Assembly: GCA_029858255.1 (NCBI GenBank)
Contig: JAOUFJ010000004.1
Span: 94,936 to 155,167, forward strand
Origin: a candidate division WOR-3 bacterium
Lineage (GTDB): Bacteria; Hydrothermota; Tepidihabitantia; SM23-42
Length of the DNA: 60,232 nt
Reading direction: 5' to 3'
Part shown: positions 6,574 to 60,232 of the stretch, piece after piece
How the letters are laid out: each line of letters begins with the position of its first letter
How positions within the stretch are numbered: the first letter of the stretch is position 1
Position numbers and translations under genes: made by a program
The notes under the pieces: model-generated
Database searches by the model: none
The model's input: only the letters and a program-made list of their open reading frames with translations
Told to the model about the DNA's origin: nothing

Positions 6574-6917
6574 TTAAGTATCTCTATTTTGACTTTCGTG
6601 ACCCCGGCTGCGATCATGTCAATCTTTTTTGCCGCGGCATAGGATATATCAATCAACCTGCCGCGTACCCACGGTCCCCGGTCATTTACCCTCACGACCA
6701 CGGATTTCTTGTTTTTAACGTTGGTGACCTTGATGCGCGTTCCAAATGGAAGATCCCTATGGGCACAGGTGTAATCCCACTGATTGAAGATTTCACCCGA
6801 TGCCGTCTTTTTGCCGTGGAATTCTGACCCATAATAGGACGCCAGGCCATATGTCGGAGCACTGGTAGGTCCACCAAATAGACAACAACATGAATAGAGA
6901 CATAACACAATGCCCAT
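6570..6917 (-). CDS. RlpA-like septal/cell-wall protein (double-psi beta-barrel)
   Basis: A 115-residue exported protein. After a short Cys-rich hydrophobic N-terminus (about residues 1-22) comes the RlpA double-psi barrel: GLASYYGSEFHGKKTASGE, LPFGTRIKVTNV, VVRVNDRGPW and a catalytic-type Asp in RLIDIS. Some RlpA proteins cleave denuded glycan strands at the septum; others only bind them. There is no C-terminal SPOR domain, so it is a minimal form. The start is fixed by a promoter whose -10 box ends 7 nt before the ATG, leaving no room for a ribosome site. It heads the ispE-prs run. Confidence 0.85.
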   Translation of the reverse strand: MGIVLCLYSCCCLFGGPTSAPTYGLASYYGSEFHGKKTASGEIFNQWDYTCAHRDLPFGTRIKVTNVKNKKSVVVRVNDRGPWVRGRLIDISYAAAKKIDMIAAGVTKVKIEILK

Positions 6918-6924
6918 TCGTCCT

Positions 6925-6952
6925 ATTATACAATGATTTATTTTGATGTCAA
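6925..6952 (-). promoter_or_regulatory. Promoter giving a leaderless rlpA-like mRNA
   Basis: Minus strand: TTGACA (6947-6952), 16 nt, TATAAT (6925-6930), then 7 nt to the ATG at 6917. Transcription would begin at or 1 nt before the start codon. Confidence 0.75.
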
Positions 6953-6964
6953 CGGAATATGTTT

Positions 6965-7663
6965 TTACTGTAGTTTCATGAAAATTTCTTCTAGCACCCC
7001 GCCCCTTGAGAAAATACGGTGTTCGCCTTTGTAGATGGCTTCGGACCGACCATCGTCATCGACATTTATGTCAACCCAACCCCTCTTGCAGGACATACAT
7101 ATTGGGAAGAGATAATCCCAGTCGCGTCGATCACCAAGATCATAGAAATAAAGGTAATCCCAGGTTTTCCCATTGCGCGGGTTTCTGGTGTAGAACAAAA
7201 AATACTGGCCGTTTGGTGAGACCCTGTAATCAAGTAATTGCTGCCATTCTCCTTCTTCTATGATTTCAACCTTCTCGCCGTCCTTCACCACAAAGAAGCT
7301 AGGATCACTGCTGAGTCTATCCCAGATTGTGACGACCAGGATCCCGTCGTATATGCCGGAGAAATCATATGAAATGTTTCTTCCCTCCTGCCCCAGTTCT
7401 TCCCACAAAAGGTTTTTCCCGGCGTCGTAAAACGATATTTTTGAATGCACCACTTCCTCATCACCGGCTTGCACCGCCTCATAGATCAGATAATACATGT
7501 GATCTTCCGACACCCTTCCCCGTCGAACGACTATTTGCCCCAAGCTGTCGCTGTAATCTTCGTCTTCCAGGATTATTATGTCAACAACTGAATCTTGATC
7601 TGTAAATTGAAGAGTATCTGCGTTCTGATAGACAAGCAACCCAACCAGAAAGAATGTTATCAT
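6965..7663 (-). CDS. Exported protein of unknown function, beta-rich
   Basis: A 232-residue protein with one hydrophobic N-terminal segment (residues 1-10 from Met ITFFLVGLLVY) and then a soluble beta-rich, acidic body with repeated aromatic strand patterns (YRVSPNGQYFLFYTR, WDYLYFYDLG) suggestive of beta-propeller-type blades. A pair of Cys near the end (ICMSCKRGW) might form a disulfide or bind metal. No family is recognised. The longer reading frame starts 8 codons upstream, but that ATG lies inside the promoter; the -10 box ends 6 nt before the ATG used here, so this start is preferred. Confidence 0.6.
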   Translation of the reverse strand: MITFFLVGLLVYQNADTLQFTDQDSVVDIIILEDEDYSDSLGQIVVRRGRVSEDHMYYLIYEAVQAGDEEVVHSKISFYDAGKNLLWEELGQEGRNISYDFSGIYDGILVVTIWDRLSSDPSFFVVKDGEKVEIIEEGEWQQLLDYRVSPNGQYFLFYTRNPRNGKTWDYLYFYDLGDRRDWDYLFPICMSCKRGWVDINVDDDGRSEAIYKGEHRIFSRGGVLEEIFMKLQ

Positions 7664-7669
7664 AAATTC

Positions 7670-7698
7670 ATTATATAAAACTTCCATTGGTTTGTCAA
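7670..7698 (-). promoter_or_regulatory. Promoter giving a leaderless mRNA for the exported unknown protein
   Basis: Minus strand: TTGACA (7693-7698), 17 nt, TATAAT (7670-7675), 6 nt, then ATG at 7663. Both hexamers are perfect consensus and the A of ATG falls at the expected +1. Confidence 0.75.
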
Positions 7699-7775
7699 CG
7701 ACCTGAGAATTTTCTAGAATTTTTGTTCAATGCAAATTTTGTGCCGAATAATATCGTTCGCTTTCCATTTTTTTC

Positions 7776-7803
7776 TTGACTTTCACCTTCTTTTGTGTAG
7801 ACT
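7776..7803 (+). promoter_or_regulatory. Likely dnaA promoter
   Basis: TTGACT (7776-7781), 16 nt, TAGACT (7798-7803). The -10 matches consensus at 4 of 6 positions. A leader of about 110 nt to dnaA follows and contains a T-rich hairpin, a short SD-led ORF and DnaA boxes. Confidence 0.5.
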
Positions 7804-7815
7804 TTAGGCACCGGT

Positions 7816-7843
7816 AAAGAATCTTTTTCAGATTCTTTTTTTT
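7816..7843 (+). terminator. Terminator-like hairpin in the dnaA leader
   Basis: AAAGAATCT (7816-7824) pairs with AGATTCTTT (7830-7838) around a 5-nt loop, and the stem runs into a T tract ending at 7843. It lies between the dnaA promoter and gene, so it could attenuate dnaA transcription. The stem is AT-rich and may be weak. Confidence 0.4.
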
Positions 7844-7876
7844 CTCGTTAACATGTCAAAAAATAAGGAGAAATGT

Positions 7877-7930
7877 ATGCTTTCCGTGTGGATAACTATG
7901 TGGGTTTCTGTGGATAAACAAAATGACTGA
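7877..7930 (+). CDS. Possible 17-codon leader peptide upstream of dnaA
   Basis: An ATG 6 nt after a clean AAGGAG (7865-7870) opens a reading frame encoding MLSVWITMWVSVDKQND. Its stop TGA (7928-7930) falls just past the dnaA ATG (7923), in another frame. dnaA itself has no ribosome site, so ribosomes finishing this peptide could restart on dnaA. Both perfect DnaA boxes lie within this ORF, so DnaA binding and leader translation use the same DNA. It could also be chance. Confidence 0.35.
   Translation: MLSVWITMWVSVDKQND
7887..7917 (+). promoter_or_regulatory. DnaA box cluster, candidate oriC/autoregulatory site
   Basis: Two perfect TGTGGATAA boxes (7887-7895 and 7909-7917) are spaced 22 nt, two helical turns, with a degenerate TGTGGGTTT (7899-7907) roughly midway. 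Gene orientation flips from minus to plus exactly here, as expected at a bacterial origin. The boxes also suit dnaA autoregulation. Confidence 0.65.
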
Positions 7931-9245
7931 GCAGGCGAAAAAAACCTGGGAGAATATCCTAAATTATTTAAAGGAAAGAATCAACCCCCAATCCTTTGCC
8001 ACATGGTTTGGCAGTAGCTCCGGAGTTGAACTTAAAGATGATGTACTCCTCGTTGAATTCCCGAACGGATTTTTTATCGACTGGATAGAGGAACATTATT
8101 ACAGCATACTGGAAGAGGCGGTTAATCACGTAAACGGAAGCAAACTGCGGCTTGCGTTCAAGGCAACAAAGCAGCAGGGTGATCGTCCGATCCGCAAGAG
8201 GAAAAGGATTATTCTTTCCCACGCCTCAACAAAACTGCAAGAGCGGTATACTTTCGAGAATTTTGTCGTTGGCAAGAGCAATGAATTCGCGCATGCAGCG
8301 GCGCTGGCCGTTGCCGAAGCGCCCGGCCAAGCATACAATCCTCTCTTCCTCTATGGTGGCGTGGGGTTGGGTAAAACCCATCTCATGCAGGCGATAGGCA
8401 ATTTTGCACATCGCCAGTATAAGAACCTGAGTGTGTATTATACTCAAGCGGAAAACATAATGACCGAGCTCATTGAGGCAATACAGAAGAACCAACAGAT
8501 GACATTTAAGAGGAAGTATCGCACGAAGGAACTCCTCCTTATCGACGATATTCAATTCCTTTTTGGAAAAGAGCGGTTGCAGGAAGAGATATTTCACACT
8601 TTTAACTACCTGTACACCCAGGGAAAGCAAATAGTCATTAGTTCAGACCGGCCACCAAAGGAGATCCCGACTATTGAGGAGCGTCTCACATCCCGCTTCC
8701 AGGGAGGGCTTGTCGTTGACCTTCAACCCCCGGACCTTGAGACTCGCATTGCTATCCTGCAGAAGAAGGCGGAATTTGAGAACATCAGGATCCCGAGTAA
8801 CGTGGCTTATTATATTGCCTCCCGGGTGAAATCGAATATCCGTGAATTAGAGGGTTGCCTGATCAGACTACTGGCAATGTCATCCTTGTCAGGCGAAGAT
8901 GTGACGGAACAACTGACCGAGACCGTGCTTAAGGACCTCTTAAACCACGGAGGCAAGGTCACGAAAGAAATGATCCTGCGCAACGTTGTCGATGAGTTCG
9001 GCTTCACCGAGTTAGAGCTCAAGGGCCGACGCAGAACCCAGAAGTTGGCACTGGCGCGACAGACTTCCATGTACTTGATCCGCAATTTGCTCAGTCTCTC
9101 CCTTACTGAAATCGGTGATTTCTTTGGAGGAAAGGACCACACAACGGTCATGCATGCTATTGAGAAAGTCGAAAATTTGAAGAAAGCCGACTTTGAATAT
9201 AGCCAAAAACTCCAGGGGATAATGACGCGAATAAATAGTGTGTAA
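7923..9245 (+). CDS. dnaA: Chromosomal replication initiator DnaA
   Basis: A 440-residue AAA+ initiator that binds DnaA boxes and melts oriC. Domain I begins immediately (TWENILNYLKERINPQSFATWF, the helicase-loading fold). Domain II is short (about 85-105). Domain III has Walker A GGVGLGKT (145-152), Walker B LLLIDDIQF and the sensor segment SDRPPKEIPTIEERLTSRFQGG. Domain IV ends in the DNA-binding signature GGKDHTTVMHAIEKVE. This start fits the family N-terminus exactly, but no ribosome site precedes it; an SD-led 17-codon ORF overlaps the start instead. dnaN follows on the same strand. Confidence 0.97.
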   Translation: MTEQAKKTWENILNYLKERINPQSFATWFGSSSGVELKDDVLLVEFPNGFFIDWIEEHYYSILEEAVNHVNGSKLRLAFKATKQQGDRPIRKRKRIILSHASTKLQERYTFENFVVGKSNEFAHAAALAVAEAPGQAYNPLFLYGGVGLGKTHLMQAIGNFAHRQYKNLSVYYTQAENIMTELIEAIQKNQQMTFKRKYRTKELLLIDDIQFLFGKERLQEEIFHTFNYLYTQGKQIVISSDRPPKEIPTIEERLTSRFQGGLVVDLQPPDLETRIAILQKKAEFENIRIPSNVAYYIASRVKSNIRELEGCLIRLLAMSSLSGEDVTEQLTETVLKDLLNHGGKVTKEMILRNVVDEFGFTELELKGRRRTQKLALARQTSMYLIRNLLSLSLTEIGDFFGGKDHTTVMHAIEKVENLKKADFEYSQKLQGIMTRINSV

Positions 9246-9384
9246 CACGTGGAGAAAAGATTGAAGAATTTGAAAGACACCGTTTGTTCACAGGAAATCC
9301 ACGTACCTTTCTGGATATTCGAAGGAAGTTTGTTGAAGGATTTTGAAGCTTTAGGGACATATCAACATTTCCACCTACCCAACA

Positions 9385-9419
9385 ACAACAACAAATATAT
9401 ATTTATATATTGTTGTTGT
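9385..9419 (+). repeat. AT-rich inverted repeat between dnaA and dnaN
   Basis: Ten bases ACAACAACAA (9385-9394) pair with TTGTTGTTGT (9410-9419); inside, TATAT/ATATA can extend the stem past one bulged A. The hairpin would lie in the dnaN leader, 18 nt before the start codon. It could be an unwinding element, a weak transcript-end or a stabilising mRNA structure. The 192-nt gap has no perfect DnaA box. Confidence 0.5.
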
Positions 9420-9437
9420 ATTTATTAAGGAGGATAC

Positions 9438-10532
9438 ATGGAATTCAAAATTGCTAAAAGTGCATTGGAGAAAACGCTGAATAGTGTCGTACGAATAATT
9501 CCTCCAAAGAGTACCTATACCGTATTACAGAATATCATATTAGAAGCAAAGGATAAAGAAATCTCGATAGAAGCAACTGATTTAGATATTTTTATAAGAA
9601 AGGTCATACCTGCCGAGGTCAAGGATACAGGAAAAGTACTGATACCGGGGAAGAAAATACTCGAAATAACAAGAGAGGCGAACGCTAAAGAAATCGGATT
9701 CAAACTAAAAGAACTGAACCTGCAAATTTCTGCTGGCAATGCGCATTTCAATATTCCTTCTTTGGACTCTCAAGAATTTCCCGAAGTCCCTAAATTTCCC
9801 GAGAAGAAATGGTTTGATATCAATATCAGTCAAGCACAGGAGATGGTCAACTCAACCATTTTCATGGTTGCAAAGGACATCAGCCGCCGGCCAATGAATG
9901 GTGTCCTCATTCAACTGAAGGAAAATGAATTAAAATTCGTAACAACCGATGGCGCCCGGTTGGCGATGTGCAAAACCGAAAAACAGGAAAATCCGGGTGA
10001 AATCATCGTTGCACCTAAACTGTTCGATCTCATCGGCTACGACAGCCCTGACGAGCAGGTCGAAATATTCTCGGAAGAAAGAATGTTGGGTCTGAAATTC
10101 GCGGACACAAAAATAATCGCGCGCTTAATTGAGGGTCCCTACCCTAACTATGAAGGGGTCATACCGAAAACCTTTGTGGGTAATTGTACGATAGAGAAGG
10201 ATATTTTAGATGGTGCCCTCAAGCGTGTTTCCCTGGTTTCCAGTCCGCACATCAAGAATGTTAAGTTTGACTACAGCAGCGGCGGTATTGTTTTATCGGC
10301 CTCCTCGCCAGACATTGGTGAGGCCAAGGAAGAAATCCCCTGTGTTTACGAAGGTGAGGGTCTATCCATCTGGTTTAACGCAAGCTACATTATCGAAATC
10401 TTACGACATGTGACGACAAACGACGTGGTTATGCAGCTGACATCACAATCGACGGCGGCACTTCTTGGACCAAAAGCACAGGAGAATATACTGTATTTAT
10501 TGATGCCTTTAAGGATCGAAGGGTGGGAATGA
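9438..10532 (+). CDS. dnaN: DNA polymerase III sliding clamp (beta subunit)
   Basis: A 364-residue beta clamp with three repeated clamp folds, tethering Pol III to DNA. Recognisable segments are the N-terminal MEFKIAKSALEKTLNSVVRIIP, the LEATDLDIFI-type strand (SIEATDLDIFIRK), RRPMNGVLIQLKENELKFVTTDGARLA at the start of domain 2 to 3, and the C-terminal ENILYLLMPLRI, where the family usually ends in a YVIMPMR-like strand. A TTAAGGAGG ribosome site precedes the ATG by 5 nt. It lies downstream of dnaA in the standard order, and its stop overlaps the next start. Confidence 0.96.
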   Translation: MEFKIAKSALEKTLNSVVRIIPPKSTYTVLQNIILEAKDKEISIEATDLDIFIRKVIPAEVKDTGKVLIPGKKILEITREANAKEIGFKLKELNLQISAGNAHFNIPSLDSQEFPEVPKFPEKKWFDINISQAQEMVNSTIFMVAKDISRRPMNGVLIQLKENELKFVTTDGARLAMCKTEKQENPGEIIVAPKLFDLIGYDSPDEQVEIFSEERMLGLKFADTKIIARLIEGPYPNYEGVIPKTFVGNCTIEKDILDGALKRVSLVSSPHIKNVKFDYSSGGIVLSASSPDIGEAKEEIPCVYEGEGLSIWFNASYIIEILRHVTTNDVVMQLTSQSTAALLGPKAQENILYLLMPLRIEGWE

Positions 10533-10996
10533 TGAAGAAATTAGCAATTCTATGTATCCTGATCGCTCCGGTGGTTGCGTTTGCCGGAAACCTGGGGCTT
10601 GGGGTCGTCCTGGGAAGTCCAACTGGACTGTCACTTAAATACATGTTGTCAAGACAGTCTGCATTCTCGGCGCATGCTGGATGGTCATTTATTGATGACC
10701 CGGGCGTGCACCTGACCGGGGACTATCAACACCTCTTTCCGATGGTGATCGAAACCGCCGAGGGCACAACGATAAGCGATTTCACGCCATATATTGCGGC
10801 TGGGGGTCGTTTCAGGTTCAAGAAGGATGAAACCACCGATGAGAATGAATTTCACCTCGGAGTGCGTATCGGTGGCGGCGTTGAATACAATGTCTCCCAA
10901 TTTGGGATATTCCTTGAAATATTGCCCGTTGTCGACCTTATCCCCGAGACCAGCTTTGACCTTGAAGGCGGGCTGGGCTTTCTCTTCTACTTTTAG
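10529..10996 (+). CDS. Small outer-membrane beta-barrel-like protein
   Basis: A protein of about 155 residues with a clear Sec signal peptide (MKKLAILCILIAPVVAFAG) followed by alternating amphipathic strands with Gly turns and a terminal aromatic residue (GGLGFLFYF), as in small outer-membrane barrels. The N-terminal GNLGLGVVLGSPTGLSLKY resembles barrel proteins of unknown role. The ATG pair at 10529/10532 overlaps the dnaN stop (ATGA), so it is coupled to dnaN; a GTG two codons earlier is less likely. Why a surface protein is coupled to the clamp is not clear. Confidence 0.7.
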   Translation: MMKKLAILCILIAPVVAFAGNLGLGVVLGSPTGLSLKYMLSRQSAFSAHAGWSFIDDPGVHLTGDYQHLFPMVIETAEGTTISDFTPYIAAGGRFRFKKDETTDENEFHLGVRIGGGVEYNVSQFGIFLEILPVVDLIPETSFDLEGGLGFLFYF

Positions 10997-11037
10997 GGCA
11001 TAGGCCGTACTAACAGGCGAAAGATAAACATTGGGTA

Positions 11038-11065
11038 TTGACAGCAACAAAAAAATTTATATAAT
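11038..11065 (+). promoter_or_regulatory. rRNA promoter P1
   Basis: TTGACA (11038-11043), 16 nt rich in A, TATAAT (11060-11065): perfect hexamers ahead of the 23S gene. Confidence 0.8.
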
Positions 11066-11089
11066 AATAGGCTGTAGGTATTTCGTCTC

Positions 11090-11117: not shown

Positions 11118-11142
11118 ATAAAGCATAGAAACTAACTGCTTT

Positions 11143-11155: not shown

Positions 11156-11177
11156 CTTATTTGGCGGAAGGTAACGG

Positions 11178-14463: not shown

Positions 14464-14491
14464 TTGACACGCTATTACGCTTCTGTATAAT
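14464..14491 (+). promoter_or_regulatory. Promoter of the secreted-protein operon
   Basis: TTGACA (14464-14469), 16 nt, TATAAT (14486-14491). A leader of about 80 nt precedes the SD-led ATG at 14580. Confidence 0.75.
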
Positions 14492-14579
14492 TCAGCACGA
14501 TGATTGAGTAGTTGTTCAGAAAGATATTTGTGAAAATTTGTAGTTGAAAAACACGCCGTAATTTATTCAGGAGGTGGTT

Positions 14580-17667: not shown

Positions 17668-19221
17668 TTAGAAGGTTTCGTCTTTTTCTTCTTCTTTGTA
17701 ACTGATCTTGTACAGGTCAGAGCGGCGGTCGAGCCAGGTCAGAACACTGCCGTCTGATCGATGTGTCTTAAGCAGCCTAAGGTCAAGATCCTGAAAGATC
17801 ATCGTTTCGATATTCGGGGCGCATTCGGCTGCAACACCGTCACGCTGAAACGGTATATCACTCGGCGTAAGAATAGCCGACTGTGCATAATGAATGTCTA
17901 GGTTCTTAACACTCGGCAGGTTGCCGACGCAGCCAGCGATTATTACATATATCCCATTCTCGATACAGCGGGCGTGAGAGCAGTATCGTATGCGCATGTA
18001 GGCTCTTCGCTCATCAGTATTGAAAGGAACGAAAATCATGTTTGCGCCTTTGCGAACAGCAATACGGGCGAGTTCGGGGAATTCAATATCGTAGCAAACG
18101 AGAATAGCGATCTTTCCCTTGTCGGTATCGAAGACTTCAACCCTGCTTCCCGGTTTTACGCCCCACCACCTGCGTTCACTCGGGGTGATGTGGATCTTAT
18201 ATTGCTTGCCGATCGTTCCATCCCTGCGGAACAGGAATGAAATGTTATACAGACCATCATCCTCGATCGCGAAGTGAGAACCGCCTATTATGTTGATATT
18301 ATGCTTAATCGCAAGTTTCGTGAAAAGGTCCAGGTAGCGCGGCGTGAATTCGGAAAGCGCGCGCATGGCTTTGGCGGGCCGTTTGATCTGGAAAAAAGAC
18401 AAGAGTTGTGTGGTGAACATCTCCGGGAACATTATGAAATCACACTTGTAGTCAGAGGCAACATCGACAAAATACGTACTGTGTTCAGCGAAATCGTCGA
18501 AATTTTTGATCATACGCATCATGTACTGTACTGCGCAAACCCTCACGTATAGAGGCGTCAAAGCACTCTCCGGGCCGGGGATATAGTCGAGGTTCGTCCA
18601 TTCAAGAAGCGTCGCAAAACCTTTTGATTCTTTATCACCGGGCAAGTATTCCGGGATGAGTCGTTTCAGGACAAACCCGTTGGCGATTTGAGCAGTAAGA
18701 ACTGGGTCGTATATCACTCTTTCCAGTACTTTCTCAACATATTTTCTTGCCGACATTTTGTCCGCGTATTTGTGAAAAGCAGGAATACGGCCGCCGAGCA
18801 CTATTCTACGTAGATTCAACTTTCTTGCGAACTTCTTGCGCTCGTTGTACAGCCGCCGACTCAGTTTGTAGCCCCTGAATTTGGGCGCCACCATGATCTC
18901 TATTCCGTAGAGCGTGTCGCCGTGCGGATCGTGGTTCGTGGCATACCCCTGCCCGCTGATGTCGCGCCAGGTGTGCGTTTCGTGATATTCGTCGAGATCT
19001 ACGATCAGACTTGATGAGGAGGCTATGATTTTTCTATTGAGCGTGATGCACAACTGTCCCTCAGGAAACACCTTGATTAGGCTGTCAAATTGCTCCCTGG
19101 TCCAGGTTTTCATGTCCGGGAAGCATTCCCTCTGAAGTGCCACTATTGCTTCGTAGTCTTCCGGTTTAAGCACGCGCAGTTTTATGCGCTTCTCGAATTG
19201 CCGAACATCGACGTCTTTCAT
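17668..19221 (-). CDS. GNAT acetyltransferase - carbon-nitrogen hydrolase fusion
   Basis: A two-domain protein of 517 residues. The N-terminal GNAT domain (about 1-200) includes LRVLKPEDYEAIVALQRECFP and an acetyl-CoA loop region near FRGYKLSRRLYNERKKFA. The C-terminal nitrilase-superfamily domain (about 220-500) has the Glu-Lys-Cys triad: Glu in FPEMFTTQ, Lys in YKIHITPSE, Cys in LVCYDIEFPE. This fusion is a known but functionally unassigned family. The longer frame has an ATG at 19248, but that lies inside the promoter spacer; the ATG at 19221 is used because the -10 box ends 9 nt before it and no ribosome site is present. Confidence 0.88.
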   Translation of the reverse strand: MKDVDVRQFEKRIKLRVLKPEDYEAIVALQRECFPDMKTWTREQFDSLIKVFPEGQLCITLNRKIIASSSSLIVDLDEYHETHTWRDISGQGYATNHDPHGDTLYGIEIMVAPKFRGYKLSRRLYNERKKFARKLNLRRIVLGGRIPAFHKYADKMSARKYVEKVLERVIYDPVLTAQIANGFVLKRLIPEYLPGDKESKGFATLLEWTNLDYIPGPESALTPLYVRVCAVQYMMRMIKNFDDFAEHSTYFVDVASDYKCDFIMFPEMFTTQLLSFFQIKRPAKAMRALSEFTPRYLDLFTKLAIKHNINIIGGSHFAIEDDGLYNISFLFRRDGTIGKQYKIHITPSERRWWGVKPGSRVEVFDTDKGKIAILVCYDIEFPELARIAVRKGANMIFVPFNTDERRAYMRIRYCSHARCIENGIYVIIAGCVGNLPSVKNLDIHYAQSAILTPSDIPFQRDGVAAECAPNIETMIFQDLDLRLLKTHRSDGSVLTWLDRRSDLYKISYKEEEKDETF

Positions 19222-19230: not shown

Positions 19231-19258
19231 ATTATACTGGTGAATCATCTTTAGTCAA
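19231..19258 (-). promoter_or_regulatory. Promoter of the GNAT-nitrilase gene, nearly leaderless
   Basis: Minus strand: TTGACT (19253-19258), 16 nt, TATAAT (19231-19236), 9 nt, ATG at 19221. The transcript would have a leader of about 2-3 nt. Confidence 0.75.
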
Positions 19259-30210: not shown

Positions 30211-30286
30211 TAGCGCCAACGGGATTTGAACCCGTGATCTTCGCCTTGAGAGGGCGACGTCCTAGGCCGGACTAGACGATGGCGCC
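30211..30286 (-). tRNA. tRNA-Glu (anticodon CTC)
   Basis: Minus strand: acceptor GGCGCCA/TGGCGCT (last pair G-T) with discriminator A. The anticodon stem TCGCC/GGCGA holds loop CTCTCAA, giving anticodon CTC for GAG. The T arm is ACGGG-TTCAAAT-CCCGT. CCA is not encoded. A strong promoter's -10 box ends 7 nt before the first base. Confidence 0.95.
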
Positions 30287-30293
30287 ATAGGCA

Positions 30294-30321
30294 ATTATAC
30301 TGATTTCGTGGATAATGTCAA
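30294..30321 (-). promoter_or_regulatory. tRNA-Glu promoter leaving almost no 5' leader
   Basis: Minus strand: TTGACA (30316-30321), 16 nt, TATAAT (30294-30299), then TGCCTAT (7 nt) before tRNA base 1 at 30286. Initiation at the usual distance would begin the transcript at base 1 or within 2 nt of it. Confidence 0.75.
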
Positions 30322-30394: not shown

Positions 30395-30422
30395 TTTACA
30401 ACCATAATAATATTGATATAAT
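30395..30422 (+). promoter_or_regulatory. Promoter giving a leaderless GTG-start glycosyltransferase mRNA
   Basis: TTTACA (30395-30400), 16 nt, TATAAT (30417-30422), 6 nt, GTG at 30429. It diverges from the tRNA-Glu promoter. Confidence 0.7.
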
Positions 30423-40530: not shown

Positions 40531-40558
40531 TTGACACAGGCAGAGAAGTCTGTATAAT
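40531..40558 (+). promoter_or_regulatory. Promoter of rnfB, near-leaderless
   Basis: TTGACA (40531-40536), 16 nt, TATAAT (40553-40558), 9 nt, ATG at 40568. Only about a 3-nt leader is expected. Confidence 0.72.
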
Positions 40559-40567: not shown

Positions 40568-41584
40568 ATGGATCTCAACGAAATCATCAAAGCGGTTGCC
40601 GGGCTTGGAGGTTTGAGCCTGGTGTTCGCTATTATCCTCGCCATCGCATTCAAGAAGCTGGCAGTTCAGATCAGCGAGGAAGAACGGAAGATCAAGGAAC
40701 TGTTACCTGGTGCCAATTGCGGCGCTTGCGGTTTCCCGGGATGCGAGGCATATGCAAAAGCGCTGGCCGAGAAGACCGGTGAATATCCACCAGATTTGTG
40801 CACGGTTGGAGGCTCTGAGACTGCCCGGGAAATTGGCAAGATACTGGGCATCGAAGTTGAAGAGAGCGCGCCCAAAGTCTGCGTCCTGCGCTGCATGGGC
40901 GGTAAGAATGAAGCGGTTGAGCGTTTTGAATATGTTGGGCCGGGCGATTGCCGCAGCAATCACATTCTCCTTGGCGGCAACAAGGCATGTATTTACGGCT
41001 GTCTTGGCGGCGGGCATTGTATTACAGTTTGTCCTTTCAAAGCGATCAAAATGGGGCCGGATCACCTACCAGTTATTGATCATGATAAATGTACGGCATG
41101 CGGTATATGCGTAAAAGAATGCCCGAGACAAGTCCTCGAGCTGATACCGAAATCACAGTTGGTATACCTGGTATGTAAATCCCTTGATAAAGGGAAGGCA
41201 GTCAAGAATGTCTGCAAGGTTGGCTGCATAGCTTGCACAATGTGCGTGAAAGTGTGTCCATATGAAGGTGCAATAGCCATGGATGGTAACCTGCCAGTGA
41301 TGAACTACGGGAAATGTACTTCATGTGGCATCTGCTACAACAAGTGTCCGACCAAGTCTTTTATCGATCGCGCAAAAGCACGTCCCCACGCCACTATTTC
41401 ACAGCAGTGCGACGGCTGCGGAGAGTGCGTGAAGGCATGTTTGTTCAAGGCGATCGAAGGCGAGCCAGGCGAGAAACACGCCGTGATAAAGGATACGTGC
41501 ATTGGTTGCGGGCGTTGTTTTGAGGTTTGTCCGATCAAAGCGGTAACCATGATCGGTGCCCTGGGTTATGCCGAAGCAGCATAG
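40568..41584 (+). CDS. rnfB: RnfB-like ferredoxin subunit with extra 4Fe-4S clusters
   Basis: A 338-residue membrane-anchored iron-sulfur protein. One N-terminal helix (about 7-28) is followed by the RnfB/NQR-type cluster region LLPGANCGACGFPGCEAYAKALAEKTGEYPPDLC, then six Cys groups: CLGGGHCITVCP, CTACGICVKECP, CIACTMCVKVCP, CTSCGICYNKCP, CDGCGECVKAC, CIGCGRCFEVCP. The last may accept 4Fe-4S in ferredoxin-like pairs. In the Rnf complex RnfB feeds ferredoxin electrons toward RnfC/D/G/E/A. None of those genes is here, so it may serve another complex. Confidence 0.88.
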   Translation: MDLNEIIKAVAGLGGLSLVFAIILAIAFKKLAVQISEEERKIKELLPGANCGACGFPGCEAYAKALAEKTGEYPPDLCTVGGSETAREIGKILGIEVEESAPKVCVLRCMGGKNEAVERFEYVGPGDCRSNHILLGGNKACIYGCLGGGHCITVCPFKAIKMGPDHLPVIDHDKCTACGICVKECPRQVLELIPKSQLVYLVCKSLDKGKAVKNVCKVGCIACTMCVKVCPYEGAIAMDGNLPVMNYGKCTSCGICYNKCPTKSFIDRAKARPHATISQQCDGCGECVKACLFKAIEGEPGEKHAVIKDTCIGCGRCFEVCPIKAVTMIGALGYAEAA

Positions 41585-42858: not shown

Positions 42859-42886
42859 TTGACATCCGCTACCCTACCTTTATAAT
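42859..42886 (+). promoter_or_regulatory. Promoter of the M1 peptidase gene
   Basis: TTGACA (42859-42864), 16 nt, TATAAT (42881-42886), then an AAGGAGGAG site before the ATG at 42905. Confidence 0.78.
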
Positions 42887-42904
42887 CGTTACTAAGGAGG
42901 AGAT

Positions 42905-44761
42905 ATGACAATATTGGCATTGTTTTTGCTGTCAAATTCATTTCTTGCAAGAGAATGCAAATTTGTGTACCACCCGGAAATTGTTAGGGCCGAATCCACG
43001 CACTCCTATGACGTTTTGCACTACCTTATCGATCTTGATATACCAATGACATCACGGTATCTCGAAGGAGCGGTAACGATGTCCGCACGCAGCAATGAGA
43101 GCAACTTGACAGTAGTGGATCTGCATCTGCTTGGATTGAATGTTGATTCGGTCAAGGTCAACGGGCTGACCGCTTCTTACAATCACGTAGATGAAACCCT
43201 TTATGTGAATTTGCCCCAGCCCGCCGGGCTGAACGATTCTTTTGACATCATGGTCGGCTACAGCGGCACGACTTCGGGCAATATGGGTTTTATCTGGGTA
43301 CAGTCGTATCTACCAATGGCGTATACCCTGGGCTGCCCTTATTGTACTAGAATGTGGATGCCCTGTTACGACCGGATGTGGGACAAGGCGGATTACGGAG
43401 TTGAGTTCTACGTTACGGTACCTGATTCATATACGGTTTGTGCCACCGGTGAGTTTCTAGGTGAGCAGACCTCTGGTGGCTACTCTACTTACCACTGGAA
43501 GCATGAGTATCCGATTTCACCTTACTTGATCCATTTCGCGGCGAGCGTCTATGTTACGATATCAGATTGGTATCACGCCTCCCCTACGGATAGTATTGAA
43601 ATGCTTTATCATGTGTGGCCGTTCGACACTAGTTACACAGCCAATGCGTTCTCTTTGATGAACGACATGATGTTTTTCTACGATTCGTTGTACGGCGAAT
43701 ATCCATTCGAACGCTACGGCATGGATTTCATTTCCGGCTTTTATTATGGGGGCATGGAGCATCAGACCATGGCTACGATAAACCGGAACTGGCTTACCAG
43801 TTATCCCCCGGATCATTTCGGCTTTGCCCATGAATTGTCGCACATGTGGTGGGGCGACATGGTCACCTGCTTCGGCTGGGAAAACGTGTGGCTAAATGAG
43901 GGTTTTGGCACGTACAGTGACGCGTTGTATCTGGAGCGAATACAGGGGCACCAGGCATTCATCGACACGATGAAGCTGCGCCGCAACGTGTATATTGGTG
44001 CTGAGCTCTCCAATCCACATTCCATGTATGACCCGCCGCCGAATCTTCTGTTCACGTGGTCACATACTTACTACAAGGCATCATGGGTACTGCACATGAT
44101 AAGATACCTTTGCGGTGACGATGCCACCTGGCTTAATTTCATGGCAACCTACCGCGATTATTTTGCCTACGGCAATTCCTCGACCGAGGACTTGAATACA
44201 TTGATGAACGGGCTGCTTGGCGGCAACTACGACTGGTTCATTGACGAATGGGTATACGGGATGGGGTTCCCCCAATACGATATTACCTGGAGCAGGGTCT
44301 ACGAGGCGCCAAACTGGCGGCTTATTCTGGATGTAACCCAGTACCAGACGATCGGCCCATCGGTCTTCCACATGCCGTTACCGATCGGGGTCGATTATTC
44401 GAGCGGCGATACTATACTGACCCTAGCAGTCAATTTCTCGCCCCAGCATTTCGAGTATGTGTTGCCCTTTGAGCCTACCAGCATAACAGTTGACCCTGAA
44501 ACCTGGGTTATCCAGCAGAATACGGTGACCGGGGTCGAGGAACTGGTGGCAAAAGGCGACCTCTTCGTCCGGAAGATCCAGACCATTGGACGGGCGATAA
44601 ACCTTAAACTGAGCGTGCCGGGTTTGATCAGGATCTTCGACATTACCGGCCGTCAGGTCTACGAGACTCACGCCGAAGAACTAGATTACCAGCCGTCCAG
44701 TGCCGGCATATATCACGTGCTGGTTGGCGATGAGAAATACAGGGTGGTGGTTGTTAAGTAA
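42905..44761 (+). CDS. Secreted M1-family zinc aminopeptidase with C-terminal sorting tail
   Basis: A 618-residue peptidase. A short hydrophobic N-terminus (LALFLLSNSFLA) is followed by the M1 beta-saddle (YDVLHYLIDLDIPMTSRYLEGAVTM), the exopeptidase-site region YGGMEHQTMATI (about 278-289), and the zinc site HELSHMWWGDMVTCFGWENVWLNEGFGTYSDAL (His-Glu-x2-His and Glu 18 residues later). The C-terminal part contains a FlgD/T9SS-like tail: INLKLSVPGLIRIFDITGRQVYETH, AGIYHVLVGDEKYRVVVVK. It ends 8 nt past the end of the oppositely oriented amidotransferase gene. Confidence 0.9.
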   Translation: MTILALFLLSNSFLARECKFVYHPEIVRAESTHSYDVLHYLIDLDIPMTSRYLEGAVTMSARSNESNLTVVDLHLLGLNVDSVKVNGLTASYNHVDETLYVNLPQPAGLNDSFDIMVGYSGTTSGNMGFIWVQSYLPMAYTLGCPYCTRMWMPCYDRMWDKADYGVEFYVTVPDSYTVCATGEFLGEQTSGGYSTYHWKHEYPISPYLIHFAASVYVTISDWYHASPTDSIEMLYHVWPFDTSYTANAFSLMNDMMFFYDSLYGEYPFERYGMDFISGFYYGGMEHQTMATINRNWLTSYPPDHFGFAHELSHMWWGDMVTCFGWENVWLNEGFGTYSDALYLERIQGHQAFIDTMKLRRNVYIGAELSNPHSMYDPPPNLLFTWSHTYYKASWVLHMIRYLCGDDATWLNFMATYRDYFAYGNSSTEDLNTLMNGLLGGNYDWFIDEWVYGMGFPQYDITWSRVYEAPNWRLILDVTQYQTIGPSVFHMPLPIGVDYSSGDTILTLAVNFSPQHFEYVLPFEPTSITVDPETWVIQQNTVTGVEELVAKGDLFVRKIQTIGRAINLKLSVPGLIRIFDITGRQVYETHAEELDYQPSSAGIYHVLVGDEKYRVVVVK

Positions 44762-56873: not shown

Positions 56874-56879
56874 GCGGTG

Positions 56880-58112
56880 CTATTTCTTTAGATATTTTTT
56901 TAGTGAGTAGACATCCCTCTTAAGCACGTGCCAAATATTTTGCAGTTTCTCAAGGGATTTTTTGCTAATACCACCGGTTTGTACATATGTTAGCGCCAAT
57001 ACATAAAGGACGCCGAAGGCAAAAGCACAGATTATCGCAATAATGACGATGAGCGTCCTTCTGGGAAATGACCTCTTTTCTGGTGGCTTTGCTTCATCAA
57101 GAATCTGCACGGTCGGTGTGTCCTTTACTTCCATAATCTTTGCCTGTTCATATTGCTGAGTGAGTAGTTCGTATATAGCCTCCTGGACCTTAACATCTCT
57201 TAAAAGACGTACATACTCAAGAGAAACCTCAGGTATCATCGCCAGCGGAACAGAAAAACCTGCGCCGAATTCCTTGGTACTATCGGTCCGGCCAAATTCG
57301 ATTTTTGCCAATTGTTTTTTCAGTTCGTTGATTTCTCGATTTACATCGCGAAGAAATGGATTATCGAACTGAGATGAGGCCGATAATGCACCGCGCTTAA
57401 CTTCGAGCAGGATAATGCTACTCTTAAGCTTGGCGATTGTGCCGATGATATTCTCTATTTCGATGTCCAGCGCGATTGTACGATGTTGTTCCTGGAATTT
57501 TCTCAGTGTTTCTTCTGCCACTGCGAGTGAATCGATATTTTCCCCGAGGCGTTTCTCTATGAACATACGATATCGCTTTCCTACCGTCATCGCTGTTTCG
57601 GTATTGAATTTATCGAGTTCTTCAATGAAGGAGTTGGCAATATCTGCGGCAAGGTATTTGTTCTTATATGTTACGCTAACGGAAATAATGCCCTCCGGGC
57701 TGACAGCTATTTTCGTGATTCCATCCAATGCATTGAGGGCATCGATTTCAGTTTTTGCTTTGAATTCCTTCTTTAGGTTATACTTTTCGACAATTGTGCG
57801 TCTTATGCGCTGACTTTTCATTATTGCCGCGTATAAATCGGACGGCGTTGTCAGTCCAGGTAACATCCCGCCTCCAATCCGGGCAAGTCCAGATAAGGCG
57901 CTTGGTACATTTACCGAGAGGAGGCCAAGCATGGATTGTTGCTCTGGATTAGGTGGAAGTATCGTTGTGGTCACGGTGTATTTATGGATCAGTACCATAC
58001 TTATGGCGGCTGCAACGATCGCCACAACCAATACATTACGCAGAATAAATTTACGCCATCTTACGATCACTTCTACGTAATCAATGAATGATTTAGCCGA
58101 TTTTTCGCTCAT
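56880..58112 (-). CDS. wzz: Polysaccharide chain-length determinant (Wzz/GNVR family)
   Basis: A protein of 410 residues. A cytoplasmic N-terminus leads to membrane helix 1 (about 26-43, NVLVVAIVAAAISMVLI). The long periplasmic coiled-coil region (about 150-330) holds ENIDSLAVAEETLRKFQEQH. A PEVSLEYVRLLRDVKVQEAIYELLTQQYEQAK segment is the GNVR-type region, and a Pro-rich stretch (DEAKPPEKRSFPRR) precedes helix 2 (about 365-387). There is no fused BY-kinase. The start is the ATG at 58112, 7 nt after a -10 box; the longer frame would run through that promoter. It leads the six-gene minus operon. Confidence 0.9.
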   Translation of the reverse strand: MSEKSAKSFIDYVEVIVRWRKFILRNVLVVAIVAAAISMVLIHKYTVTTTILPPNPEQQSMLGLLSVNVPSALSGLARIGGGMLPGLTTPSDLYAAIMKSQRIRRTIVEKYNLKKEFKAKTEIDALNALDGITKIAVSPEGIISVSVTYKNKYLAADIANSFIEELDKFNTETAMTVGKRYRMFIEKRLGENIDSLAVAEETLRKFQEQHRTIALDIEIENIIGTIAKLKSSIILLEVKRGALSASSQFDNPFLRDVNREINELKKQLAKIEFGRTDSTKEFGAGFSVPLAMIPEVSLEYVRLLRDVKVQEAIYELLTQQYEQAKIMEVKDTPTVQILDEAKPPEKRSFPRRTLIVIIAIICAFAFGVLYVLALTYVQTGGISKKSLEKLQNIWHVLKRDVYSLKKYLKK

Positions 58113-58119
58113 TAATCGA

Positions 58120-58147
58120 AGTATATTCACTTTTGTAATAATGTCAA
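58120..58147 (-). promoter_or_regulatory. Promoter of the wzz operon, leaderless
   Basis: Minus strand: TTGACA (58142-58147), 16 nt, TATACT (58120-58125), 7 nt, ATG at 58112. Confidence 0.75.
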
Positions 58148-58215
58148 CACGCACAGCAATAAGTGCTGCAATTCGAAGGATACAAGGCTGTCCATCCCTC
58201 CATGCGGGCTTTATC

Positions 58216-58243
58216 TTGACTGAGAGTCGATTTTTCGTATACT
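58216..58243 (+). promoter_or_regulatory. Promoter of the formyltransferase operon
   Basis: TTGACT (58216-58221), 16 nt, TATACT (58238-58243), 6 nt, then the ATG of a 43-codon ORF at 58250. It diverges from the wzz promoter. Confidence 0.65.
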
Positions 58244-58249
58244 TCATCG

Positions 58250-58381
58250 ATGCGTTCTTCGATCCGGGAAATCGTTGGGCTTATACAGGATTTTGCTTGT
58301 GCTGGCTCACAGATTCATGATGCATGCGTCAAGATTATGTGTGATCGAGCAATATTTCTGGAAAGACCCAATTCGTATTGA
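58250..58381 (+). CDS. Possible 43-residue leaderless small protein
   Basis: An ATG 6 nt after a -10 box opens 43 codons (from MRSSIREIVGLIQDF to FLERPNSY) ending TGA at 58379-58381, 3 nt before the formyltransferase ATG. The promoter fits the leaderless type found elsewhere in the window. The middle GSQIHDACVKIMC is weakly like the C-terminal part of PIN-domain toxins (Gly-x-x-HDA), so it could instead be a decayed VapC remnant, its frame being open only about 10 codons upstream. Confidence 0.4.
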   Translation: MRSSIREIVGLIQDFACAGSQIHDACVKIMCDRAIFLERPNSY

Positions 58382-58384
58382 AAG

Positions 58385-59179
58385 ATGAAAATATTAGTGG
58401 TGACTCAAGATGACCCTTTCTATCTGCCATGTTTCTTCAAATCGTTCTTTGATGAATTCTTAAGAGAGTTGGGCGGGATTGAAATCGTAGGCGTTGTCAT
58501 ACAACGTCCTCTGGGACAGAGATCTAAGAAAAAACTCCTGTGGAGAATGATCGAGTTTTACGGGCCGGTAGTTTTCGCCGTGATCTCACTGAGATATGTT
58601 CTACAACAGATAGCCAACAGACTCAATCGGCTGGGATTGATGAAGGCCGCTCATTCAATAGACTATTTCTGCCGACGTAACGGAGTACGAATTCTTCCAT
58701 ACAGGAATGTCAATCATCCGCGGTTCGTTGAATTCGTAAAGAACAGCAAGATAGATTTAATCGTTTCGGTTGCCGCGGCACAGATATTTAAGTCGGATAT
58801 ACTGAGGGCGCCGAGGCTGGGGTGTATAAACATTCATAATGCGCCTCTCCCCGATTACCGCGGTATGATGCCGAGTTTCTGGCAGATGTTCCACGGAGAG
58901 AAACACACAGTAGCAACAGTCCATGAAATGGTTGAGGAAATCGATAAGGGAAGGATTATTTTTCAGGCACAAACCGAGATTACAAGGGGCATGACACTCG
59001 ATGCGTTGATCAAAAAAACAAGGAAGGTTGATGCGTGGGCGCTACTAAAGGTGCTCAGGATGTTCAAGGAAGGTCGGGTGAAATACCGTAACCTGCCAAA
59101 TAAAAAGGGTTCTTACTTCTCTTTTCCTTCCAGGCGTGACGTGGTGGAGTTCAAGAAGAGAGGTTATAGAATCGTATGA
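58385..59179 (+). CDS. Formyltransferase-family protein
   Basis: A 264-residue enzyme of the N10-formyl-THF-dependent formyltransferase fold. DLIVSVAAAQIFKSDILRAPRLGCINIHNAPLPDYRGMMPSFWQM (about 120-165) carries the catalytic Asn-x-His (INIHNAPLP); the later Asp is in HEMVEEIDKGRIIFQ (about 180-194). N-formyl amino sugars are made by such enzymes in O-antigen loci, which suits this cluster. It overlaps the next gene by 4 nt (ATGA). No ribosome site precedes its ATG, and the small ORF upstream could supply it. Confidence 0.85.
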   Translation: MKILVVTQDDPFYLPCFFKSFFDEFLRELGGIEIVGVVIQRPLGQRSKKKLLWRMIEFYGPVVFAVISLRYVLQQIANRLNRLGLMKAAHSIDYFCRRNGVRILPYRNVNHPRFVEFVKNSKIDLIVSVAAAQIFKSDILRAPRLGCINIHNAPLPDYRGMMPSFWQMFHGEKHTVATVHEMVEEIDKGRIIFQAQTEITRGMTLDALIKKTRKVDAWALLKVLRMFKEGRVKYRNLPNKKGSYFSFPSRRDVVEFKKRGYRIV

Positions 59180-60051
59180 AGTATTTTGTGCTCTCTGTTG
59201 ACATCGAGGATTGGTTTCAGGTCGAGAATCTTAAGAAGCAGATTCATTACGACGAGTGGCCCGGGAAAGAATCGCGAATAGATGAAAGTACCAGGGTTGT
59301 ACTCGATATATTGAAAAAGAGAGATATAAAAGCAACGTTTTTCATACTTGGTTGGATCGCTAAAAGGAAACCCGAATTGGTAAAAGAAATTGCCTGTCGG
59401 GGACATGAAATCGCATCTCACGGATATAAACACGAGTTACTGCATAAGATTGATGATTCTGCGGTAGAATCTGATATCAGGAAATCAGTTGAGATATTGA
59501 GTCCGTTATCGCAGAAGGAGATCATCGGATACCGCGCGCCCAGTTTCTCAATAACAAAGGCTGCTGCCTGTGCTCTTAAGGCGATGAATTTCGTTTATGA
59601 CGCCAGCCTTAATGATTTCCAGTTCAACAGAAGGTATGGGAAGATAGGAACATGCAATAAGATGAGCAGGGTAGATGGTAGCGACGTCAGGTTTACAGTT
59701 CTGGAAAACGACCTTGTTGAATTCCCGATCTCAGTAAATACATATCTCACGATATACTGGCCTTTGGGTGGTGGCTACTTCAGATTATCTCCAATGTGGT
59801 TTATTAGAAAGCAGCTGCATGATATTTTCAGAGAGAGTGACATCGTGAGCATTTACCTGCATCCATGGGAATTTGATCCGGGACAGCCGCGTCTGAAGAG
59901 TTTGAGCACAAATTATTACTTCCGACATTACTATGGTCTGGACAGAACTGCGGACAAGATAGACAATTTGATCAGGTTGGTAAAGAATTCCCCTGGCGTT
60001 AAGATTAAAACTTTTGGGGAAATGGCCAAGATCCTGGCGCGTAAAGTTTAG
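59176..60051 (+). CDS. Polysaccharide deacetylase (NodB homology, DUF3473 type)
   Basis: A 291-residue protein. SVDIEDWFQVENL (about 7-19) holds the catalytic/metal Asp pair, then KATFFILGWIAKRKPELVKEIACRGHEIASHGYKHELL (about 54-91) with the metal His-x4-His (HEIASHGYKH). RAPSFSITKAAACAL follows. The C-terminal DUF3473 domain has VEFPISVNTY, GGGYFRLSPMW and YLHPWEFDPGQP (about 228-239). Such proteins are common in exopolysaccharide loci. It may deacetylate an N-acetyl sugar that the formyltransferase then formylates. Confidence 0.88.
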   Translation: MKYFVLSVDIEDWFQVENLKKQIHYDEWPGKESRIDESTRVVLDILKKRDIKATFFILGWIAKRKPELVKEIACRGHEIASHGYKHELLHKIDDSAVESDIRKSVEILSPLSQKEIIGYRAPSFSITKAAACALKAMNFVYDASLNDFQFNRRYGKIGTCNKMSRVDGSDVRFTVLENDLVEFPISVNTYLTIYWPLGGGYFRLSPMWFIRKQLHDIFRESDIVSIYLHPWEFDPGQPRLKSLSTNYYFRHYYGLDRTADKIDNLIRLVKNSPGVKIKTFGEMAKILARKV

Positions 60052-60096
60052 AGAATTCTTAGAGAATCTCGAACGCGCGCACGAAAGACATTTATC

Positions 60097-60124
60097 TTGA
60101 CTTTATATCTATCCTATTTATAAT
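60097..60124 (+). promoter_or_regulatory. Promoter for the last gene, leaderless
   Basis: TTGACT (60097-60102), 16 nt, TATAAT (60119-60124), 6 nt, ATG at 60131. Confidence 0.72.
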
Positions 60125-60130
60125 AGCTCA

Positions 60131-60232
60131 ATGCAGGATCAAATAAATATCTTTGAGCAGGATTTCTGGTCAATAAATGACGCGCTCAACCGACTCCTGC
60201 AGGGTACCCACGCCAAGACAATATTGCTCATC
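60131..60232 (+). CDS. Start of a probable roadblock/LC7-type protein (partial)
   Basis: The first 34 codons (from MQDQINIFEQDFWSI to AKTILLI) are seen before the window ends. The segment INDALNRLLQGTHAKTILLI resembles the first helix and strand of roadblock/LC7 (MglB-like) regulators of small GTPases. The start is supported by the promoter 6 nt upstream and the absence of a ribosome site. With so little sequence the family is a guess. Confidence 0.45.
   Translation, partial: MQDQINIFEQDFWSINDALNRLLQGTHAKTILLI

What the first reader, a model, noticed from the sequence alone, without database searches (positions are those of the whole stretch)
6917..60133. Many genes appear to be transcribed as leaderless mRNAs
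At eight starts the -10 hexamer ends 6-9 nt before the start codon and no ribosome site fits: 6917 (7 nt), 7663 (6), 19221 (9), 30429 (6, GTG start), 40568 (9), 58112 (7), 58250 (6) and 60131 (6). In four of them the longest reading frame runs back through the promoter, so standard start prediction would be wrong. Other genes nearby keep strong AAGGAGG sites, so both modes coexist. Leaderless genes with a -10 box next to the start are known in other phyla; the frequency here is notable.
Basis: partly seen in the sequence, partly recalled or inferred. Interest (0 to 1): 0.7.

Follow-up and report, generated by a model that had tools for sequence, protein, structure and literature searches.

The report
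Leaderless genes in WOR-3 bacteria
In this uncultured bacterium about one gene in nine appears to have its promoter pressed right against the start codon, so its message would begin at the first codon with no ribosome-binding leader; this is known in other bacteria, and is shown here with evolutionary support for a little-studied phylum.

Summary
The genome is a WOR-3/Stahlbacteria MAG. In an 860-kb sample, 92 of 726 genes have a strong promoter whose -10 box ends 5-9 nt before a candidate start, against 11 at 0-4 nt and 15 at 10-14 nt. Twenty dinucleotide shuffles average 1.3, and hidden downstream SD starts are no commoner than in a control stretch. A Shine-Dalgarno match of 5 nt or more occurs at 1 of those 92 starts, but at 49 of 82 genes whose promoter lies only 14-60 nt away. 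The anti-SD is intact. At six of eight sites every ortholog examined keeps the arrangement; 58250 is not a convincing gene; 58112 found no relative in the loci held. Best reading: sigma70-type leaderless transcription in about 11-13% of genes, beside SD-led genes. A known kind, in a phylum where my searches found no report of it. Side finding: the -35/-10 spacer is 16 nt in this family and 17 nt in another family of the phylum. No transcript end has been measured.

The parts
6570..6917 (-). RlpA-like (DPBB_1) gene with leaderless-type start at 6917
   Evidence: Pfam PF03330; 17 of 17 family loci have TATAAT 5-7 nt before an in-frame start
6925..6952 (-). promoter TTGACA-N16-TATAAT, -10 ends 7 nt before 6917
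   Evidence: sequence
6965..7663 (-). gene of unknown function with leaderless-type start at 7663 (not 7687)
   Evidence: no Pfam match; -10 box 4-7 nt before ATG in 10 of the 10 loci with a match, of 17 searched
7670..7698 (-). promoter TTGACA-N17-TATAAT, -10 ends 6 nt before 7663
17668..19221 (-). GNAT + carbon-nitrogen hydrolase gene with leaderless-type start at 19221 (not 19248)
   Evidence: Pfam; 5 of 5 loci above 55% identity keep TATAAT at 6-9 nt
19231..19258 (-). promoter TTGACT-N16-TATAAT, -10 ends 9 nt before 19221
30395..30422 (+). promoter TTTACA-N16-TATAAT, -10 ends 6 nt before 30429
   Evidence: TATAAT in 18 of 18 loci above 55% identity
30429..31094 (+). family 2 glycosyltransferase gene, GTG leaderless-type start
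   Evidence: PF00535; start 6-7 nt after TATAAT in 18 of 18 loci, 10 GTG and 8 ATG
40531..40558 (+). promoter TTGACA-N16-TATAAT, -10 ends 9 nt before 40568
   Evidence: both hexamers invariant in 9 of 9 aligned WOR-3/Stahlbacteria sequences, the window included
40568..41584 (+). RnfB-like ferredoxin gene with near-leaderless start
   Evidence: FeS and Fer4 Pfam domains; alignment A1; the name RnfB is my reading of the domains
56880..58112 (-). Wzz-like chain-length determinant gene, leaderless-type start at 58112
   Evidence: PF02706 and PF13807; promoter and distance only, no relative in the 24 loci held, no genome search made
58120..58147 (-). promoter TTGACA-N16-TATACT, -10 ends 7 nt before 58112
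58216..58243 (+). promoter TTGACT-N16-TATACT, 6 nt before ATG 58250; probably serves formyltransferase 58385-59179 with a leader of about 130 nt
   Evidence: 43-codon ORF scores as non-coding and found no relative in 24 loci; PF00551 in 58385-59179
60097..60124 (+). promoter TTGACT-N16-TATAAT, -10 ends 6 nt before 60131
   Evidence: TATAAT 6-9 nt before ATG in 17 of 17 loci without internal stop
60131..60232 (+). start of a gene cut by the contig end (34 codons)
   Evidence: open frame 174 codons in 13 of 17 loci; conserved upstream region
42859..42907 (+). contrast: the same promoter type followed by an SD-led start (TTGACA-TATAAT-leader with AAGGAGGAG, ATG at 42905)

Best explanation
These genes are transcribed from ordinary sigma70-type promoters (TTGACA, 16-nt spacer, TATAAT) placed so that transcription starts at, or within about 3 nt of, the first base of the start codon. 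The mRNA then carries no Shine-Dalgarno site and would be translated by the leaderless route, in which a ribosome binds a 5'-terminal AUG or GUG. The same genome uses SD-led initiation for other genes, and for the genes examined the choice is kept among orthologs of the family. Shown here: the position of the promoters, its excess over chance, the absence of SD, and its conservation. Inferred: the transcription start site and the way of translation.
For: Peak at d=5-9 with 92 of 726 genes, flanked by 11 and 15 in the neighbouring 5-nt bins. 20 dinucleotide shuffles give a mean of 1.3 and a maximum of 5; start triplets that do not belong to a called gene stay at 6-19 per position over d=0-30 (18 at d=5 and 6) where starts of called genes peak. 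SD of 5 nt or more at 1 of 92 such starts, 49 of 82 genes with a promoter only 14-60 nt away. 85 of the 92 are TU-first-like (85 of 377, against 7 of 342 internal-like). Orthologs, window included: rnfB 9 of 9; glycosyltransferase 18 of 18, RlpA 17 of 17, hydrolase 5 of 5; 60131 gene 17 of 17, 7663 gene 10 of 10 with a match. In 4 of 17 RlpA loci the open frame is exactly 115 codons, with a stop directly before the start codon, so no upstream start is possible there. SD plus in-frame start within 30 codons downstream: 6 of 92, control stretch 7 of 92. Anti-SD CCTCC intact in the 16S. E. coli, same method: no peak.
Against: No transcript 5' end has been measured. Distances of 8-9 nt could leave 2-4 nt leaders. 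The gene set rests on my own simple gene finder, not a curated annotation. About 11-15 of the 92 may be background, judged from neighbouring bins. The dip at d=10-14 is not empty: of 11 genes with a site only there, 8 have it at their best-scoring start. In the f37 samples only 3 of 13 led starts have an SD of 5 nt or more, so lack of SD alone does not prove leaderless. The E. coli control has few strong promoters and so is weak.
Confidence: 0.92

Rival explanations
1. The promoters make ordinary leadered mRNAs, and the true starts are in-frame codons further downstream with SD sites; the ATG next to the -10 box is incidental.
For: At 58250 the ATG opens a 43-codon ORF without a relative in the loci held, and the likely gene starts 135 nt further on. 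Two of five exact matches in the window are not leaderless genes.
Against: SD plus in-frame start within 30 codons in 6 of 92 cases, 7 of 92 in a control stretch. Glycosyltransferase orthologs keep the distance while the start codon itself switches between ATG and GTG. Start triplets outside called genes show no such peak.
Confidence: 0.04
2. Leadered but SD-less initiation as in Bacteroidetes: transcription starts at other, unseen upstream promoters and translation uses A-rich or unstructured leaders.
For: FCB-group genomes are reported to use AT-rich non-SD sites (PMC9581028, passages). 237 of the 552 genes outside both promoter classes have no SD match of 4 nt or more near the best-scoring start, so some other mode may exist for them.
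Against: It gives no reason for a full -35/-10 promoter fixed 5-9 nt from the start, nor for the dip at 10-14 nt. SD sites are common: 272 of 726 genes have 5 nt or more.
Confidence: 0.03
3. Chance or compositional artefact of an AT-rich upstream region.
For: TATAAT-like words are common in AT-rich DNA.
Against: Shuffles give 1.3 against 92; reversed pattern 0 against 81; both hexamers invariant in 9 of 9 aligned sequences while the spacer diverges.
Confidence: 0.01

Closest known systems
-10 motif adjacent to ORFs in Deinococcus-Thermus (PMC12340547; sections 7, 11, 14 and passages read)
   Same: -10 box about 6-7 bp before the ORF, coexisting RBS motif, mis-annotated starts, conservation among homologs
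   Different: There the motif is degenerate (TANNNT, most often TACACT) in about 30% of ORFs; here it is a full TTGACA-16-TATAAT in about 11-13% of genes
TA-led (leaderless) genes of Zheng et al. 2011 (PMC3160421; abstract and section 7 read)
   Same: TA-like signal about 10 bp upstream of the start; TAtaaT pattern in medium-GC genomes
   Different: 207 of 953 bacteria surveyed had them; WOR-3 is not among the groups named in the section read
Bacterial leaderless class of GeneMarkS-2 (Lomsadze 2018, not held; known through passages of PMC9581028)
   Same: leaderless transcription in part of the genes; predicted for 21.6% of bacterial species, up to 40% of transcripts
   Different: that survey used NCBI representative genomes; whether WOR-3 was included is not known to me
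Leaderless mRNA translation in general (PMC9031893; listing and passages read)
   Same: initiation codon at or very near the 5' end, 70S binding; GUG used in some species
   Different: mechanism not tested here

Membership tests
Bacterial leaderless genes (TA-led / -10-adjacent) | -10 box ending about 5-9 nt before the start codon, in excess of chance | tested here: met
   92 of 726 genes, shuffle mean 1.3
Bacterial leaderless genes (TA-led / -10-adjacent) | no SD at those starts | tested here: met
   SD of 5 nt or more in 1 of 92; 1 of 158 over seven samples
Bacterial leaderless genes (TA-led / -10-adjacent) | genes are first in their transcription unit | tested here: met
   85 of 92 TU-first-like, 7 internal-like, by neighbour strand and gap only
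Bacterial leaderless genes (TA-led / -10-adjacent) | coexistence with SD-led genes and an intact anti-SD | tested here: met
   17 of 53 window genes with SD of 5 nt or more; 16S tail GGATCACCTCCTTTC
Bacterial leaderless genes (TA-led / -10-adjacent) | transcript 5' end at the start codon | not testable with these tools
   needs dRNA-seq or 5' RACE
Bacterial leaderless genes (TA-led / -10-adjacent) | translation from a 5'-terminal AUG/GUG by 70S ribosomes | not testable with these tools
   needs toeprinting or ribosome profiling
Bacteroidetes-type SD-less leadered initiation | SD largely absent from the genome | tested here: not met
   SD of 5 nt or more near the start of 272 of 726 genes

The most novel reading that the evidence does not exclude
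In this order of WOR-3 bacteria, leaderless initiation is a stable second programme, fixed gene by gene over family-level divergence and with leaders of about 4-8 nt avoided. It goes with a primary sigma factor whose optimal -35/-10 spacer has moved from 17 to 16 nt, so that transcription and translation start signals have evolved together.
Probability: 0.15. Interest if true: 0.6.

Novelty: new member of a known kind. Interest (0 to 1): 0.42.

Why it matters
Start sites in WOR-3 genomes are likely to be mis-annotated where a longer frame runs through such a promoter: 26 of 92 cases in the sample have an in-frame start codon further upstream. The clean consensus promoters give a simple way to place starts and transcription start sites in MAGs of an uncultured phylum. 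The per-family differences (28% of exact promoters have ATG at 5-7 nt in the own family, 8% in f37) make the gain and loss of leaderless initiation testable inside one phylum.

Tried and rejected
Functional bias of the leaderless set was not tested. A sigma54 scan (TGGCAY-N5-TTGCW) of the 860-kb sample gave 3 hits and 3 in the reversed control, so no genome-wide sigma54 claim is made. rnfB outside the family: one search fetched 30 loci; 28 of them plus two named ones were read by eye. In most, rnfB starts directly behind what looks like the end of rnfA (recalled, not tested) or has an SD; exceptions are L228 and L231 (unclear), L236 (TATACT 7 nt before the start, no clear -35 noted), L237 and L238 (match only residues 104-338). 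This says more about operon position than about switching of initiation mode. The first gene finder failed, with 38 genes called in G000, because of a poor background model; it was rebuilt. Chance leads: exact pattern matches at the tRNA-Glu promoter and at 14464-14502. The f30 sample (G126) showed 0 of 113 genes at d=5-9 although its exact-pattern counts are enriched; the composition-corrected threshold is stricter in AT-rich genomes and I did not resolve this. The scoring slightly favours a 16-nt spacer; with equal weight for 16 and 17 nt the count is 97.

Rows dropped before counts: loci under 55% identity or without a match (21 of 26 for the hydrolase, 8 of 26 for the glycosyltransferase, 0 of 17 for RlpA). 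In one search, 7 of 17 loci gave no match for the 7663 gene; for the 60131 gene two broken copies (L213, L214) and one row that repeats another locus (L212, whose own diverged copy was not read) were left out of the 17. In one search, genes open at the 5' edge of a stretch were left out (726 of 753 kept).

Literature searches behind 'no report found': leaderless + WOR-3 (0 papers), leaderless + Shine-Dalgarno + phyla + metagenome-assembled, leaderless + candidate phyla (3 papers, listing and abstract starts seen only), Stahlbacteria + Shine-Dalgarno, leaderless + promoter + candidate division + start codon, leaderless + Caldifarciminota. Most subscription journals are not in the library and supplements were not searched; the Deinococcus paper's supplementary species tables, which might include a WOR-3 genome, were not seen.
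Full report
Identity of the window. The window is bases 94936-155167 of contig 4 of a 2.72-Mb, 82-contig genome, 96.6% complete. Its RnfB-like protein is 75-91% identical to those of eight records named candidate division WOR-3 or Candidatus Stahlbacteria. NCBI lists candidate division WOR-3 under the phylum name Caldifarciminota.

Check of the eight sites. Six head recognisable or conserved genes: an RlpA-like gene, a conserved gene of unknown function, a GNAT/carbon-nitrogen hydrolase, a family 2 glycosyltransferase, an RnfB-like ferredoxin, and the gene cut by the contig end at 60131. A seventh is a Wzz-like gene (58112) for which the 24 loci held gave no relative; no genome search was made for it. 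The eighth, 58250, opens a 43-codon ORF that scores as non-coding and has no relative in the same 24 loci; the formyltransferase at 58385 is the likelier gene of that promoter. Both tests of 58250 are weak (short ORF; mostly distant paralogs among the loci), so a small regulatory leaderless ORF there is not excluded.

More than chance. Exact TTGACA-N15-19-TATAAT-N4-10-ATG occurs 81 times in the genome and never when the pattern is read backwards. With ATG 14-20 nt away there are 49 matches, many carrying AAGGAGG-like words, and some being second ATGs of the same promoters. In 860 kb (the window plus 40 stretches of 20 kb) my gene finder called 753 genes, 726 with their 5' end inside. Genes with a promoter score of at least 12 at distance d from a candidate start: d=0-4, 11; 5-9, 92; 10-14, 15; 15-19, 39; 20-24, 30; 25-29, 28. 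The single positions 5, 6, 7, 8, 9 hold 39, 27, 16, 7 and 10. Twenty dinucleotide shuffles of the upstream regions give a mean of 1.3 and a maximum of 5. Around the same 337 promoters, start triplets that do not belong to a called gene stay at 6-19 per position over d=0-30 (18, 18, 6, 12, 12 at d=5-9), while starts of called genes number 35, 27, 15, 7, 10 there. At looser thresholds the excess is similar: 109 (threshold 10) and 128 (threshold 8) at d=5-9 against 16 and 42 at d=0-4 and 18 and 35 at d=10-14 (sums over positions). After subtracting neighbouring bins this is about 11-13% of genes. Of 377 genes that seem to head a transcription unit, 85 (23%, before any subtraction) are of this class.

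No ribosome site. At the 92 starts, 87 have no SD match of 4 nt or more, four have 4 nt, and one has 6; random positions have 4 nt or more in 12.6% of cases. Of 82 genes with a promoter only 14-60 nt away, 49 have 5 nt or more. SD starts within the next 30 codons are as rare as in a control stretch (6 against 7 of 92). Start codons are 75 ATG, 15 GTG and 2 TTG. The 16S rRNA ends in GGATCACCTCCTTTC, so the anti-SD is intact. In the window 17 of 53 genes have an SD of 5 nt or more near the best-scoring start.

Conservation. In nine aligned WOR-3/Stahlbacteria sequences, the window included, the rnfB upstream region keeps all 12 bases of both hexamers, 8-9 nt before ATG, while the spacer and the flank diverge. 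The glycosyltransferase keeps TATAAT 6-7 nt before the start in 18 of 18 loci above 55% identity, with GTG in 10 and ATG in 8. RlpA keeps TATAAT at 5-7 nt in 17 of 17. The hydrolase keeps it in 5 of 5, at 6-9 nt, so the 9 nt of the window is at the long end. The 60131 gene keeps it in 17 of 17 loci without internal stop (6-9 nt), and the 7663 gene has a -10 box at 4-7 nt (TATAAT in 9, TATACT in 1) in the 10 loci with a match. In 4 of 17 RlpA loci the open frame is exactly 115 codons, with a stop directly before the start codon, so no start further upstream is possible there.

Spread in the phylum. Over 147 genomes, exact promoters (16-18 nt spacer) number 10,498; 2,442 have ATG at 5-7 nt and 7,042 matches have ATG at 8-37 nt, a per-position ratio of 3.5 (N8-37 can count one promoter more than once, which lowers the ratio). 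In the own family (23 genomes) 28% of exact promoters have ATG at 5-7 nt (range 23-34%). Of 37 families, 17 (92 genomes) are enriched at p<0.001. Nine families with at least 20 exact promoters have a ratio under 1.6; one of them, f37, with 950 promoters and 8% at 5-7 nt, still reaches p=0.0006. Gene-level samples (d=5-9, with d=0-4 in brackets): f1 97 (12) of 726 and, in a second genome, 16 (2) of 151; f3 21 (5) of 172; f33 10 (3) of 155; f10 9 (0) of 102; f37 5 (1) of 316; f30 0 (0) of 113 (where 16- and 17-nt spacers weigh the same, hence 97 instead of 92). Over all seven samples an SD of 5 nt or more is found at 1 of 158 d=5-9 starts and in 105 of 155 genes with a promoter only at d>=15; in f37 the latter is 3 of 13. 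E. coli K-12 by the same method shows no peak (3 at d=5-9, 3 at d=0-4, of 175 genes, threshold 8), but has few strong promoters.

rnfB outside the family. Read by eye in 28 of 30 fetched loci, rnfB mostly starts directly behind what looks like the end of rnfA or has an SD; L228, L231, L236, L237 and L238 do not fit either description clearly. The leaderless state of rnfB in this family seems to go with its position at the head of a transcription unit.

Mechanism. Shown: promoters sit 5-9 nt before start codons, beyond chance, without SD, and conserved. Inferred: with the usual 5-8 nt between -10 and +1 (general knowledge), transcription starts at or within about 3 nt of the start codon, and translation uses the leaderless route (PMC9031893, passages). 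The dip at d=10-14 fits two separate classes, since 4-8 nt leaders suit neither mode; but it is a dip, not a gap: 15 genes lie there, and of the 11 with no d=5-9 site, 8 have it at their best-scoring start and only one has an SD of 4 nt.

What is known. Leaderless genes were found in 207 of 953 bacteria, at around 20% of genes in Actinobacteria and around 40% in Deinococcus-Thermus (PMC3160421, section 7). A later estimate gives 21.6% of bacterial species, up to 40% of transcripts (PMC9581028, passages). The -10-adjacent arrangement was tested with reporters in Deinococcus (PMC12340547, sections 7, 11, 14 and passages). The WOR-3 case works like these, and every defining feature that could be tested was met. 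My searches found no paper on it in WOR-3. I file it as a new member of a known kind.

Side finding. With at most one mismatch, the spacer between TTGACA and TATAAT is 16 nt in 164 sites and 17 nt in 27 in G000, and 36 against 1 in G072 of the same family. It is 17 nt in f37 (72 at 17, 6 at 16) and mixed in f3 (17 and 14) and f33 (20 and 15). Leaderless and led promoters of G000 share the 16-nt spacer (80 of 92 and 69 of 82, with a scoring that slightly favours 16), so the spacer looks like a property of the lineage and not of leaderless genes.

Noticed in passing
G000 sample and f37 samples (L151-L160, L250-L269): The optimal -35/-10 spacer is 16 nt in the window's family but 17 nt in family f37 of the same phylum (16:17 nt = 164:27 in G000, 6:72 in f37, at one mismatch or fewer).
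   Followed up: partly
window 7731-7745, minus strand: A sigma54-like element GGCACAAAATTTGCA (name recalled) lies about 82 nt upstream of start 7663, ahead of the leaderless promoter; a full element is visible in 7 of 10 orthologous stretches of 75 nt. Such elements are not enriched in the 860-kb sample.
   Followed up: partly
window 58113-58249: Divergent promoter pair between the Wzz-like gene and the formyltransferase; the 43-codon ORF at 58250 ends 3 nt before the formyltransferase ATG (TGA AAG ATG).
   Followed up: partly
window 60131-60232 and G000 C38:2859-2960: The contig ends inside the gene; another contig (C38) encodes an identical first 34 residues behind a different upstream region, so there are two copies or an assembly break in a repeat.
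   Followed up: no
window 6870-6917: The RlpA-like protein begins MGIVLCLYSCCCLFGG, a lipoprotein-like signal without the usual positively charged residues at its start.
   Followed up: no
window 30286-30321: The tRNA-Glu gene has the same TTGACA-N16-TATAAT promoter close to its 5' end, a source of false positives in pattern searches.
   Followed up: yes
G000 sample: 237 of the 552 genes outside both promoter classes also lack an SD match of 4 nt or more near the best-scoring start; how these start is unexplained.
   Followed up: no
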